A stretch of DNA of 64,000 nt from Tilletia caries (lineage: Eukaryota > Basidiomycota > Exobasidiomycetes > Tilletiales > Tilletiaceae): positions 744,001 through 808,000 of the forward strand of contig JALUTQ010000004.1 of NCBI GenBank assembly GCA_032718865.1. The letters run 5' to 3'. Both the position numbers and the translations under genes were made by a program. How positions within the stretch are numbered: position 1 is the stretch's first letter; each line of letters opens with the position of its first letter. The notes under the pieces were generated by a model, which made no database searches, had not been told where the DNA came from, and saw only the letters and a program-made list of their open reading frames with translations. Of the stretch, positions 3,594 to 8,015 are shown in pieces.

Positions 3594-4019
3594 GTTGTTC
3601 TGTGGGATGCTGGTGGGGGGACGAAGGATGCAAGGAGCGCGAATTCAAAAAAGTCAGCAACAAGTCAGCGGTGGAGAGAGCAGACGGGGTGTGTAAGTTT
3701 CATCAGTCAGCTTTCAGCTTGGCTTCCTCCTCTTTATAGCCTTCTACGGCGGCAAGGATGATGGGGATGGACCGGGACCGATGGACCGCCGTGGAAGCAG
3801 GTCAGAAGAGAAGGTGGAGTCTGGAGAGGGTGGATGGACCTTAACTCCGTGGAAACTGGAAAGGCTGCCCGATCGGCAATGATTGCATTCGGCTGAACGG
3901 TAAAAGAACGTACCGACTACCGAGCTGCGCTCCTGGACCCTGGTCCGCGCTCACCACGACCAACTGACTGAATGAAGTCCCTTCAAGCAGCAAGCAACAG
4001 ACAGCAGGGAGCAAGCACA
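3594..4019. promoter_or_regulatory. intergenic region between MDR gene and Fanzor relic
   Basis: This holds the 5' flank of the MDR gene (minus strand) and the upstream side of the Fanzor-like gene (plus strand). A TATA-like TTTATAG occurs at 3732-3738. No terminal inverted repeat of a carrier transposon was recognised. Confidence 0.4.
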
Positions 4020-7000
4020 ATGGCGACTTCCGCTACATCTCTGCGGCCGCCGCTTCCCATTAAGCAGGCCTCTTCCTCAGCCTCCGCCTCCGCATCCTCC
4101 TCAGCCTCGACCTCATCCTCGGGCGACTCCCAGAGCCTCTTCGTCGTCTGCTGTTTCCTCACCGACATCTTCGTTTCCCAACGACTCGGTATCGACCCCT
4201 CGTCGAGCCGACTCTCGGGCCTTGTCACCAGCGGAGTCCTCTCCAGCCTCACCGGCACCTGCTCGTCACCGGCTTCGCTCGCTCTCCTTTTCAAGAAAGC
4301 GACCCACCGTTGACACGTCCCGGCAAAGTCTCGACCAGTCAGATTTGTCCCCAGTAGCGGGGTACTCCACCTTCTCACCGTCTTCGGAAGCGCCTCCCAC
4401 TTGGACGAGCCGCAGAGCGTCGCTGGCCCTAGCGCTGCACGAACTCGCGGACATCCAACAGGGATTCCGATGCTGAATGCAGATCATGATGATGGTGGTG
4501 AGTACATGCAGTGGTGTCCTTGCGTGGAGTATGTTTTTGAACACAGACTCATTACCCTCTCTCTCTGGTTCAGATGCACGCCATCCTAGCCCAGCTCCTC
4601 CGCCACGGCCGCCGTGGCTAGACCCCGATCTCCCGCCCCGGCTTGGCCCCGCAGACTACGGACATTACCAGTCCAACCCAGCTCCCCCTTCGCCGCCACC
4701 GCCAACACCGCAAGATCTCGCACCGCCACCACTGCCGTGGCTGGACCCTACTCTCGCTGAGAGGGATCGGCCCCCTCCGCCTCCCGGGCTCGAACTGCAA
4801 CCATTGCAACCACCGCAACCGCCCACCTCATCATGGGAATCTATTGCGCGGCTACCAGCGAAGGACAAGCAGGATGCCCTAATTCAAGCACTCCGGTCCA
4901 GTCAGAAAGATGACTGGAAGGCCAAAGTCAACAACCTTCTTGACTTTGCGACGAGCTCCTTGGTGGAGGAAGTTCGAGTGGCGATTTTATTGGCGGCTGC
5001 ACCAATTTTTCGCACCATGGTTTACGGATGAGTCAAGCAGACTCTCGCGAAGATTGTGGGGCATCACAGGAGAGAGCTGGACGCAAGAATCCGCAAGGCT
5101 TTCAGACGCCTTTTCTGCGGGCAAGGATCGGGAATGGGCAACGACTGTCCATCAGCCACGAGCCAATCGGGAACACAGCATCATTTCTGCTTCATCCCTG
5201 CGGTTCAGTCGACAGCAACTCATCTCTCGTAACGACATGGGGCAAAACGTTTCGGATGCGCGAGAAGGGGCAAGCTTTTGGGAGTGCAGGACGTGGGCGA
5301 CTCAGCGGCTTTGGGATGCATTCGTGGCGCGGGGCTTGAATACCTCCTCCCTCACGAAGCCAAAGGGGTCGAAGAGGGATACGGGAAAAAGGAAGATGGA
5401 GGACGGAGAAGGCAGCAGCGATTCAAAGAAAGTGCGCAAGCTTTCTTACGATGCCGACTCTAAGGCAGCCTTCGAGAGACGTGCTGCCAAGGACAAGAAG
5501 AGAGCTCCACCCAAGCGGAAGGAGCCGGAATGCTTACGAGCTGTGCGACTTCGACTCTATCCTTCGGCAGAACTTGGAGCAAAGCTCCGGGAATGGGAAT
5601 CATTGGCGGCCTCTTTGCGACAGATGGTTCGCGCTCGCCTCCAAAAAGCAAAGGACGTCGGAGAGAAAACGGATGCCTTCGTCTTGGCCGACCAGACTTG
5701 TCTCAGCCAAACGAAATGGAACAAGATGACTGCAGAGGAGAGGGCTTCAGTCGATCAGAACCGTCAACGCCTCATCGAACTTCCCCACAATTTTCAACGC
5801 GAACTAGTCCTCAAGGTGGCGGCGAACGCTCGAGCGGCGCAGACAAACCTGGAGCGTGGATCGACAAAGTCCTATCGACTTGATTCCGCCGACGAGGATG
5901 ATAAATCCGTTCTGTTCTTCACATCAGAAGCCATCGATAAGCGAGGAGCACTATTCCCACGCATCCTCAAGCACATCGACTCCAACCTTTACGTGCGAGA
6001 TCGCATGCTGGCTGGACCGGGCGAGCGCAGGAGAAAGCGATCGGACTGGGTCAAGCTCCTCACGGGAGCTTCCAGAAGCTTCAGCATTCACAGGACAGGC
6101 CGTAAGTGGTACTTGCTTCTGAGCCACGACGCTTGGACGGGACCATACACAGAGGAAGGAAAACGGCAGGGGTTGGACAAGAGATGGAACTCGCGCAACA
6201 AAGCAGTCTTCGAACCGACAAAGCGAGCCGGAAACTGCATCGCATTGGACCCCGGAGCTCGCGATCTGCTTACCGGCTACGATGCTCAACGGCAGCAGTT
6301 TTACACTTATCTGACGGGAATCAACGAGCACATCGAACGGGCCCATGCAAGCATCGCAAGTGCGCAGTCCAAGCTGGACAAACTCAAGAATGAGACGGGG
6401 CCCACGGTGGACACCGATACCGGCAGAAGAAGACGTCGAGCGCGTCGGCGAGTCAACAAGCAAAGAGGTGGCAAAAAGAAGAAGGGCCGGTCTAGCTCGG
6501 CCGAGCAACGCGCTGCCCGCAAGGCCGCCAAGAAGAGCCATCCCTACTTCGTCCGCCCTAACGAAAGGTCGATTTTGAGAGCACACGAACGGCTTCGAGT
6601 ACACATCACACAGGCCCAAAAACTGCACCGTTAATGCCCTCGTATCCAACTACGACCTGGTGGTACTGCCGGACTTCATGACCGCGCGGATGATCAAGCG
6701 CCGACGTCGACGGCAAGGAATGCCATATTCCAACGTACCGCAGCGAGAGGCGGCGGTACAAGGCGATGAAGCAAACGAGGAACCAGCTGCCAACTTCGTT
6801 TTGGCAAAGCGCTCTCGAGCTACCTTAGCTCGTTTTGGACATCGGCAATTTCGAGAGCGGTTGGTGGCCAAAGCACAAGCTGATCCCAACCATCAAAAGG
6901 ATGTCCTCGTTACATCAGAGGAGTACACGACGAAGCAGCACCCCTTTCAACGCGGTCTGCACAGCAAGATCGGTGGGAACAAGACCTGGCATTACTGCCA

Positions 7001-7088
7001 TCTCCGGGGTAAACGTGACAACGTGGGCGCGTTTAACATTCTTCTGCGCGCACTTACGAAAGACGAAGTGCGGCTCAGCTCCCAATGA
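4020..7088 (+). pseudogene. Fanzor (eukaryotic TnpB-like RNA-guided nuclease) gene, broken
   Basis: The C-terminal two thirds carry the TnpB/Fanzor landmarks in order: LRAVRLRLYPSAELGAKL at about 5539-5585; RuvC-I CIALDPGARDLLTGYD with Asp codon 6248-6250; NYDLVVLPDFMTARM at about 6645-6685; RuvC-II SEEYTTK with Glu at 6918-6923; and RuvC-III KRDNVGAFNIL with Asp at 7017-7019. All three acidic RuvC positions remain. The usual CxxC zinc ribbon between II and III is largely gone (TTKQHPFQRG, then WHYC). The stop of the first frame at about 6632-6634 falls inside conserved sequence, and the homology resumes at once in another frame, so there is a frameshift. The 5' part is Ser/Pro rich. It holds a clear intron (4498-4573), probable frame changes near 4140 and 4400, and possibly an intron at 5229-5288; one reading has an in-frame TGA at 5029-5031. 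Fanzors are transposon-borne nucleases using an RNA encoded near their 3' end. Identification is by motif only. Confidence 0.78.
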
Positions 7089-8015
7089 TCACCAGCAGAA
7101 CTTCACGCTCACGCTTACGCCCTGTCTCGAGGGCCACATTGACTCAGGTCTCCAAACAGGAATCCTGTGGAAACATGTGAATATACTGAGAGAAGAAGAA
7201 GCTCAAGCTCGTATGAAATTTAAATAAATGGGAGGGGGAAAGTAAAGTTAAAAGGTACGAGACTTTTATATTCTTTTCTCTCTACCATCCTTATTGGTAT
7301 ACCTAAAGAGACACGCCCTCTCTTTGCTAGGGCGATAAAAATACCTTCACCTTCGCGAACTTCTCGACCACATCGACAACGACATGGAGGGCAAAGACGG
7401 CGATAATGAATGCTATTCACAGGAGAGTACTACTGCTTCTGAAGATTGTTTGTACAGGGAGCATGCGAGTAGCTAGGGCGAGACGTTCAGAAGGAGAGTG
7501 TGAGGAGGGAATAAAAGCAGGAAGCACAGCACACCATCGAACGGTCACAGGTCACAAGGGATGGGCGCCGGGCCAGGGGGGGTAACGGGACCTTGAACCG
7601 CGGAGCGTGGCTGGCAGCGAAGAAAGGGTTCACGGAGACATGGATCCAGAAATCTTGATGAGACAGTAGGCGAAGAAGAATGAGTGTTGAGCGTTGAGCA
7701 GTCGGAAAGGACATCGGAGGCGAAGACGATGTGAAAGCCGTTTTGAAGACGAATATTGGTGGCAGCGGATACATTGTGAGGAGGTGGATACGGAAGGCAG
7801 AGAGAGCTGGTCTCCCGAGCGGCGGCCAGCGCCTCGGCGCCCCCGTCTTGTCCCTGCCTCGAAATCCAGTTGCCCTTGATCCGTATACCTGAAAAGGTTT
7901 GCTTGAGGTCGAATATGTACCCGAAAATAAGAAGATTGAATAAGAGCATGGATCCGGGTGCCGGCCATTGTCCATAGCGCAATGTCATTGACGTTTGACG
8001 AGGGTCGACCTCGAA
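7089..8015. other. 3' flanks; possible site of a Fanzor guide RNA, nothing proven
   Basis: This joins the end of the Fanzor relic to the end of the kinase gene. An AT-rich stretch follows 7220 (TTTAAATAAATGGGAGGGGG and TTTTATATTC). Fanzor guide RNAs usually lie at or just beyond the 3' end of the ORF, so 7050-7250 is the place to look, but I see no structure that proves one. The minus-strand ORFs at 7487-8067 have no recognisable domain. Confidence 0.4.

What the first reader, a model, noticed from the sequence alone, without database searches (positions are those of the whole stretch)
4020..7088. A Fanzor (RNA-guided, TnpB-like) nuclease relic in a basidiomycete-like genome
Motifs LRLYP, DPGARDLLTGYD, YDLVVLPDF, SEEYTTK and KRDNVGAFNIL appear in the TnpB/Fanzor order, with all three RuvC acidic residues retained although the reading frame is broken near 6625-6640. 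Fanzors are known from some fungi and protists, but copies are scattered and few are described for basidiomycetes. The long Ser/Pro-rich N-terminal region is also unusual. This is the best candidate in the window for a little-studied system.
Basis: partly seen in the sequence, partly recalled or inferred. Interest (0 to 1): 0.88.

Follow-up and report, generated by a model that had tools for sequence, protein, structure and literature searches.

The report
Fanzor-bearing one-ended Helitron-like transposon
This stretch is a shortened, frame-broken copy of a young fungal jumping gene that carries a relative of the RNA-guided DNA cutter Fanzor and appears to copy itself like a rolling-circle transposon, sometimes dragging neighbouring host DNA along.

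Summary
The Fanzor reading is right in substance, wrong in anatomy. Window 4399-7193 is one of nine copies (about 98% identical) of a transposon in a Tilletia genome (bunt fungus, near T. controversa). Its gene keeps the Fanzor DPG, relocated Glu, TT and RD signatures, but three or four of the four zinc-ribbon cysteines are gone. An unbroken predicted protein, probably an allele of this locus, is held for T. controversa; T. walkeri has a 56% relative. The window copy has two frame breaks and lacks the element's 5' part. The Ser/Pro-rich stretch from 4020 is an unrelated duplicated fragment. All nine copies share one 3' terminus with nine unrelated right flanks; 5' ends are truncated or run into host DNA. 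The complete element has a 9-bp asymmetric terminal inverted repeat; two of six testable copies have 8- and 11-bp target duplications. Chlamydomonas Fanzor1-Helitron2 elements show this pattern. The genome holds 24 further Fanzor-like loci; the three fetched keep the cysteines. Verdict: new variant of a known kind, a zinc-ribbon-degenerate Fanzor in a Helitron2-like element moving one-endedly. No autonomous partner was found; RNA-guided activity is untested.

The parts
3984..4398 (+).
   Evidence: Matches C34:1460150-1460293 and 1460625-1460903 at 94-96%; at L057 the same sequence ends ..GCGCCTCCC and goes on with other DNA, a natural counterpart without the element
4399..7193 (+). 5'-truncated copy of the Fanzor-bearing element; the first 491 alignment columns of the 3.29-kb shared core are missing, and the 117 nt that precede the core in complete copies
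   Evidence: DNA repeat, 8 long copies and 1 split copy at about 98%; common right end
4399..4497 (+). Remainder of exon 2 of the Fanzor gene (..PQSVAGPSAARTRGHPTGIPMLNADHDDG); exon 1 with the first ATG is missing here
   Evidence: L050 reads MKEMPAYE, an intron, then PEPAKRPIEFLDEPQSVAGPS.. (read by eye); T. walkeri P0002 begins MPAYESVAGPSAARTRG
4498..4573 (+). Intron (GTGAGT..TTCAG)
   Evidence: Sequence; P0001 reads straight across it: MLNADHDDGDARHPSP
4574..7088 (+). Main coding part of the Fanzor-like protein, in three frames because of two breaks at short A/T homopolymer runs (near 5006-5012 and 6618-6634)
   Evidence: unbroken protein P0001
6248..6256 (+). RuvC-I DPG motif with catalytic Asp
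   Evidence: Sequence; P0001 D568, P0002 D532
6918..6920 (+). Relocated RuvC-II Glu (Ealt) in SEEYTTK
   Evidence: Aligned with the Glu of VEDWTSKVCSTCG and PEDYTSRTCSECG of other Fanzor-like proteins of the genome
6939..7013 (+). Degenerate zinc ribbon (HPFQ..YCHL where families B and C have two Cys pairs)
7014..7019 (+). RuvC-III RD motif
   Evidence: Sequence
7169..7177 (+). 3' asymmetric terminal inverted repeat GGAAACATG, 16 nt from the 3' end; its partner CATGTTTCC is the 5' end of complete copies (L050:1855) and does not occur in the window
7178..7193 (+). 3' terminus of the element
   Evidence: nine mutually unrelated right flanks

Best explanation
Window 4399-7193 is a 5'-truncated, frame-broken copy of a non-autonomous Helitron2-like element whose only recognised gene is a Fanzor-like RNA-guided nuclease with a degenerate zinc ribbon. 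Shown by sequence: nine copies with one common 3' terminus, nine unrelated right flanks and variable 5' ends (truncated, or extended into host DNA), a 9-bp asymmetric terminal inverted repeat, and 8- and 11-bp target duplications at two copies. Inferred: a RepHel protein made elsewhere in the genome nicks at the 3' end; rolling-circle copying runs towards the 5' end; stopping early gives truncated copies such as this one, and running past the 5' repeat captures upstream host DNA. Inferred from Fanzor biochemistry: the protein binds an RNA from the element's 3' end that reads into the right flank as guide, cuts the matching empty site, and so favours keeping or spreading the element. The window copy itself is most likely inactive.
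For: Fanzor-like: PF07282, PF01385, NF040570, phrog_506; DPG, Glu six residues before the zinc-ribbon position, TT, RD with spacings 225/227 and 24; hhalign E 8.8e-7 to family B, which passes the NF040570 cut-off (E 2e-30) and hits solved TnpB and TnpB-like L79. Transposon: 9 of 9 copies share the 3' end, with small variants at the last bases in the window copy and L056, and their 1500-nt right flanks show no mutual BLAST match. Variable 5' ends: window at core +491, L051 near -10, four copies (L049, L052, L054, L055) at 0 joined to one 165-bp sequence whose counterpart without the element is L060, three (L050, L053, L056) running past the 5' terminus into one sequence whose counterpart is L062. 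ATIR CATGTTTCC/GGAAACATG (27 of 63,988 random starts give as much). TSDs: 11 bp at L055 flanking an 8-kb unit, 8 bp at L056; 8 bp or more at 132 of 200,000 random junction pairs. Helitrons are abundant: 60 PF14214 matches, some of them pieces of one element. The same signature (3'-intact, 5'-truncated or 5'-capturing copies, 7-19 bp TSDs, ATIRs) is described for Fanzor1 elements CRe-1, 2, 3 (PMC3627910).
Against: No autonomous element with these ends: with up to 3 mismatches the 3' end was found only at Fanzor copies (8 of the 9) and the 5' end at three Fanzor copies and one other locus on C35, whose nearest listed Helitron match is over 300 kb away. Termini of two Helitrons could not be delimited. 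TSDs not seen at L049, L051 and the window copy, doubtful (5 bp) at L053; left junctions of L050, L052 and L054 lie outside the fetched DNA. The ATIR was found on testing three candidate 5' starts; the other two gave none, and the control does not count that choice. The 5' terminal base is C, not T; the 3' ATIR lies 16 nt, not 20-30 nt, from the end; the 4-bp stem found lies upstream of it. Seven of nine copies sit on contig C34, which also suits local duplication. No RNA structure signal at the 3' end (z -1.3 and -0.6). AlphaFold model useless (pLDDT 38.7). C4 zinc finger not met. P0002 alone scores poorly against TnpB profiles.
Confidence: 0.74

Rival explanations
1. The copies were spread by ectopic recombination, break-induced replication or segmental duplication on contig C34, not by transposition; the common 3' end marks a preferred break point.
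For: Seven of nine copies on C34, binomial p 2e-8 if places were independent; pairs share long left flanks (L049/L055, L052/L054).
Against: One 3' terminus with nine mutually unrelated right flanks, two of them on other contigs; TSDs at two copies; ATIR.
Confidence: 0.14
2. The copies are LINE-type retrocopies: common 3' end, 5' truncation and variable TSDs all fit target-primed reverse transcription.
For: 3'-fixed, 5'-truncated copies and 8-11 bp TSDs; the window copy ends in a GAA-rich tract.
Against: The 76-nt intron region has no gap in the 8 aligned copies (L056 was left out of that alignment), no poly(A) tail at the right ends, 4.7 kb of upstream DNA carried along, a terminal ATIR, no reverse-transcriptase match in the frames scanned.
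Confidence: 0.06
3. The frame breaks are assembly errors in a hard-to-polish repeat, so this genome's copies are really intact.
For: Single-base length differences at short homopolymer runs (eight A/T-run sites and, in the Pro-rich part, two C-run sites of one or two bases) differ from copy to copy and do not follow the copy pairs that share long flanks; P0001, sharing 10 of 14 window-private residues, is unbroken.
Against: Other repeats of this assembly keep long open frames: 9 of 19 loci scored alike in family B have frames of 400 aa or more (one of the 9 with an inner stop), seven Helitron frames exceed 1,000 aa. Substitutions among copies look near-neutral (43 nonsynonymous, 18 synonymous; 2.8:1 expected) and include one in-frame stop in L053.
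Confidence: 0.4
4. The protein is a host-domesticated or unrelated RNase H-fold protein rather than a Fanzor.
For: Profile scores mostly below curated cut-offs, zinc ribbon lost, no homologue outside Tilletia in three protein searches.
Against: Nine mobile copies; colinear homology to family B with aligned catalytic residues.
Confidence: 0.05

Closest known systems
CRe-1, CRe-2, CRe-3: Fanzor1 in non-autonomous Helitron2 elements of Chlamydomonas reinhardtii (Bao and Jurka 2013, PMC3627910; passages and sections 8 and 9 seen)
   Same: Fanzor1-type gene with introns, no RepHel of its own, 3' end kept, 5' truncations and captured upstream DNA, variable TSDs, ATIRs at the ends
   Different: Fungal host; 9-bp ATIR, 16 nt from the 3' end; 5' base C; no TTTT before the two TSDs; no Helitron sharing its ends found; zinc ribbon degenerate; nine copies, seven on one contig
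Characterised Fanzor1 nucleases SpuFz1, GtFz1, PpFz1 (PMC10432273, PMC11423790; passages seen)
   Same: Fanzor-type RuvC site: Asp, Glu near the TNB domain, third Asp (Asn in GtFz1)
   Different: C4 zinc ribbon lost, extra loop after LPDF relative to families B and C; RNA and activity untested; no significant sequence match to solved chains
Fanzor-like families B (L063, L064) and C (L065) of the same genome
   Same: Same RuvC core, aligned catalytic residues
   Different: B is a single open frame with CxxC..CxxC; C has four Cys (second pair spaced by four); B and C score far better against TnpB profiles
IS91/ISCR one-ended transposition (recalled; the IS91 comparison is in PMC3627910 section 8)
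   Same: Copying from the 3' end with capture of DNA beyond the other end
   Different: Bacterial, with its own transposase, no Fanzor

Membership tests
Fanzor (Fanzor1) | DPG at RuvC-I | tested here: met
   Window 6248-6256; P0001 D568, P0002 D532; definition from PMC10711439 passages
Fanzor (Fanzor1) | Relocated Glu six residues before the zinc finger | tested here: met
   E791 in P0001, aligned with the Glu of families B and C; counted to the position where the first Cys would stand
Fanzor (Fanzor1) | D-X(125,275)-[TS][TS]-X-X .. X(5,50)-RD | tested here: met
   Spacings 225 and 227, then 24; motif from the PMC3627910 abstract
Fanzor (Fanzor1) | C4 zinc finger between RuvC-II and RuvC-III | tested here: not met
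   HPFQ..YCHL and HPFQ..FDGM. PMC10711439 says 'many' have it; so filed as a Fanzor-like variant, not as plain Fanzor1
Fanzor (Fanzor1) | Profile score over curated cut-off | tested here: inconclusive
   PF07282 over the cut-off at 2 of 8 listed copies, the window's just under (25.8 against 26.3); NF040570 30.6 against 100; P0002 far under
Fanzor (Fanzor1) | Guide RNA from the 3' end | tested here: inconclusive
   No significant fold; no DNA of a distant relative to test covariation
Fanzor (Fanzor1) | RNA-guided DNA cleavage | not testable with these tools
   Needs biochemistry
Helitron2 (non-autonomous) | Asymmetric terminal inverted repeats, 5' copy 0-2 bp from the end, 3' copy subterminal | tested here: met
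   9 bp at offset 0 and 16 nt from the 3' end; published 3' spacing is about 20-30
Helitron2 (non-autonomous) | Hairpins at both ends | tested here: inconclusive
   4-bp stem CAGG-AAT-CCTG upstream of the 3' ATIR; the 5' fold involves part of the ATIR but has no control
Helitron2 (non-autonomous) | 5'-terminal T | tested here: not met
   5' base is C; a nucleotide preference in PMC3627910
Helitron2 (non-autonomous) | Ends shared with a RepHel-coding Helitron of the genome | tested here: not met
   Patterns with up to 3 mismatches hit only Fanzor copies and the C35 locus; more divergent ends not excluded. Hence 'Helitron2-like', not Helitron2
Helitron2 (non-autonomous) | One-ended copies with variable TSDs | tested here: met
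   Common 3' end in 9 of 9; TSDs of 8 bp or more at 2 of 6 copies with a known left junction

The most novel reading that the evidence does not exclude
In fungi as in green algae, Fanzor-bearing Helitron2-like elements move one-endedly and capture host DNA, and the Fanzor protein itself, here without a working zinc ribbon, steers this, by cutting guide-matched empty sites or nicking at the 3' terminus so that copying starts there: a rolling-circle transposon with an RNA-guided targeting step.
Probability: 0.1. Interest if true: 0.85.

Novelty: new variant of a known kind. Interest (0 to 1): 0.56.

Why it matters
What a Fanzor does for its transposon is open. A young fungal family with natural element-free counterparts, target duplications, captured DNA and an unbroken protein in a sister isolate gives, beside Chlamydomonas, another case of Fanzor with one-ended Helitron2-type movement. 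It also suggests that the TnpB zinc ribbon can be lost while the RuvC triad is kept. The same genome shows several Fanzor-like families side by side in a basidiomycete; the held library has no paper with Fanzor and either Basidiomycota or Tilletia in its text, though supplementary tables were not searched.

Tried and rejected
A short intron in place of the break near 6630: rejected, since P0001 reads through there as coding sequence. Structure prediction on two sequences: too poor to use, so no fold search was run. Sequence search of solved structures with the family: no meaningful hit. Three large protein searches: only Tilletia relatives (searches scored only the about 8,000 candidates sharing most words). 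3'-end RNA structure: not above shuffles. Delimiting two autonomous Helitrons for end comparison: failed, they are too divergent, and the one short shared stretch is low-complexity. Frames of the C35 locus that shares the 5' end (four scanned): no Pfam match better than E 0.17. PADLOC: nothing.

Full report
What is there. Library scans of these pieces give weak but consistent TnpB-type matches: PF01385 E 0.011, PF07282 E 2.7e-5, NF040570 E 5.3e-5. P0001 (below) gives NF040570 E 2.1e-7 and phrog_506 E 5.8e-8, its T. walkeri relative P0002 only PF07282 E 0.12. Solved-structure sequence searches gave nothing useful.

Whose genome. The window is G000:C4:744001-808000 of a 38.1-Mb assembly in 40 contigs. 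Querying with a natural frame of copy L052, the best protein relative is an 846-aa 'unnamed protein product' of Tilletia controversa, P0001 (98%, a cluster of 31 member sequences), then an 816-aa T. walkeri protein, P0002 (56%). P0001 carries 10 of 14 residues private to the window copy among 8 aligned copies and the others' residue at the remaining 4, so it is probably an allele of this locus, with an unbroken predicted frame. That the assembly is T. controversa or a near relative such as T. caries is an inference. Passages of PMC9172201 list helitronORF among the transposon classes of these bunt fungi.

Copies. DNA search finds eight long copies and one split copy of window 4400-7191 at about 98% identity: the window copy, one on C9, seven on C34. 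In the 8 copies aligned (L056 left out), coding length differences are single-base differences at eight A/T-run sites, one- or two-base differences at two C-run sites of the Pro-rich part, and copies of a 9-bp repeat unit. No copy matched the two window frames as one open frame. The differences do not follow the copy pairs that share long flanks. Whether they are mutations or assembly errors cannot be settled here. Substitutions among copies are near neutral: 43 nonsynonymous, 18 synonymous, 2.8:1 expected, with one in-frame stop in L053. Between P0001 and P0002, at 52% identity, the catalytic motifs are kept.

Gene anatomy. Copy L050 reads MKEMPAYE, then an intron, then PEPAKRPIEFLDEPQSVAGPSAARTRG (by eye); P0002 starts MPAYESVAGPSAARTRG. 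The window copy begins inside exon 2. The intron 4498-4573 is supported by P0001, which reads across it. The upstream stretch 3984-4398 matches C34:1460150-1460903, where the sequence goes on without the element.

Protein. D568 in DPG, E791 in SEEYTTK, and R823-D824 (P0001 numbering) align with the DPG Asp, the relocated Glu and the RD Asp of two other Fanzor-like families of this genome. The cysteines of the zinc ribbon are gone: the first pair is His and Gln in both P0001 and P0002; of the second pair one Cys remains in P0001 and none in P0002. Defining signatures come from passages of PMC10711439 and PMC3627910. The AlphaFold model was too poor to use.

Mobile element. All nine copies end at the same 3' terminus, with small variants at the last bases in the window copy and L056, and their 1500-nt right flanks have no mutual BLAST match. 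Left ends differ. Three copies (L050, L053, L056) run through the 5' terminus CATGTTTCC into one sequence whose element-free counterpart is L062. Four (L049, L052, L054, L055) start 117 nt further in and are joined to one other sequence whose element-free counterpart is L060; of these, L049/L055 and L052/L054 carry further upstream DNA, in L052 with a TLC-domain-like frame (PF03798 E 0.0013, under its cut-off), in DNA also found at C34:1424829-1426588. L051 starts about 10 nt before that point, and the window copy 491 alignment columns after it.

Ends and target duplications. The 5' terminus CATGTTTCC has its reverse complement 16 nt from the 3' end (two other candidate starts tested there gave none); 27 of 63,988 random starts would do as well. 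Left junctions are known for six copies. L055 has an 11-bp duplication, AGATCACCCTC, around an 8-kb unit of captured DNA plus element (the script, cut one base short, scored 10). L056 has 8 bp, AAGGCTTT. L053 has a doubtful 5 bp; L049, L051 and the window copy have none. Random junction pairs reach 8 bp in 132 of 200,000 trials.

Comparison. Bao and Jurka (PMC3627910; passages and sections 8 and 9 seen) describe Fanzor1 elements CRe-1, 2, 3 of Chlamydomonas as non-autonomous Helitron2 with intact 3' ends, 5' truncation, captured upstream DNA, 7-19 bp TSDs and ATIRs. The Tilletia element matches in these points. It differs in the 5' base, the 3' ATIR spacing, the zinc ribbon, and in that no RepHel element sharing its ends was found, although the genome has 60 Helitron_like_N matches. 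I therefore file it as a Helitron2-like element with a Fanzor-like gene.

Wider view. PF07282 finds 33 places in the genome: 8 of the 9 copies of this family, 24 other loci at E 1e-4 or better (23 clearly stronger than the window family, one about equal), and one weak. Three of these 24 were fetched: two of a 19-locus set scored alike (family B; L063 gives NF040570 E 2e-30, with CxxC..CxxC) and one of three loci within 24 kb on C34 (family C, four Cys, second pair spaced by four). That all 19 belong to B is inferred from their scores.

How it works. Shown: copy number, ends, junctions, captures, gene anatomy, catalytic residues. Inferred: RepHel in trans, copying from the 3' end, guide RNA from the 3' end, cleavage of empty sites. 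Literature: no paper in the held library joins Fanzor or TnpB with Tilletia, or Fanzor with Basidiomycota; PMC10432273 passages say that Fz1 and Fz2 are widespread in fungi; supplementary tables, where such hosts could be listed, were not searched.

Noticed in passing
Genome G000, e.g. L063, L064, L065; places: 24 further Fanzor-like loci outside the window family; two fetched copies of family B keep long open frames with zinc-ribbon cysteines.
   Followed up: partly
L055:5347-6644 and window:2515-3802: The L055 insertion lies next to a 95% paralogue of the window's dehydrogenase-like gene region, so two copies of the element sit close to copies of the same gene.
   Followed up: partly
L056:4189-4977 and L061 (reverse strand) 1071-1859: A 790-bp repeat, 98% identical, is inserted in Fanzor copy L056 and lies in the C35 locus that shares the element's 5' end.
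   Followed up: no
L052:650-1837, C34:1424829-1426588: A frame with a weak TLC-domain match lies in the upstream DNA carried by two copies (L052, L054; scanned in L052 only) and that DNA occurs elsewhere at 98%: likely gene capture.
   Followed up: partly
window:39680-46256: Two overlapping frames with reverse transcriptase, RNase H, integrase and Tf2-1-like SH3 matches: a gypsy-type retrotransposon.
   Followed up: no
window:17871-22502: A 1543-aa open frame on the - strand without any Pfam match at 1e-5.
   Followed up: no
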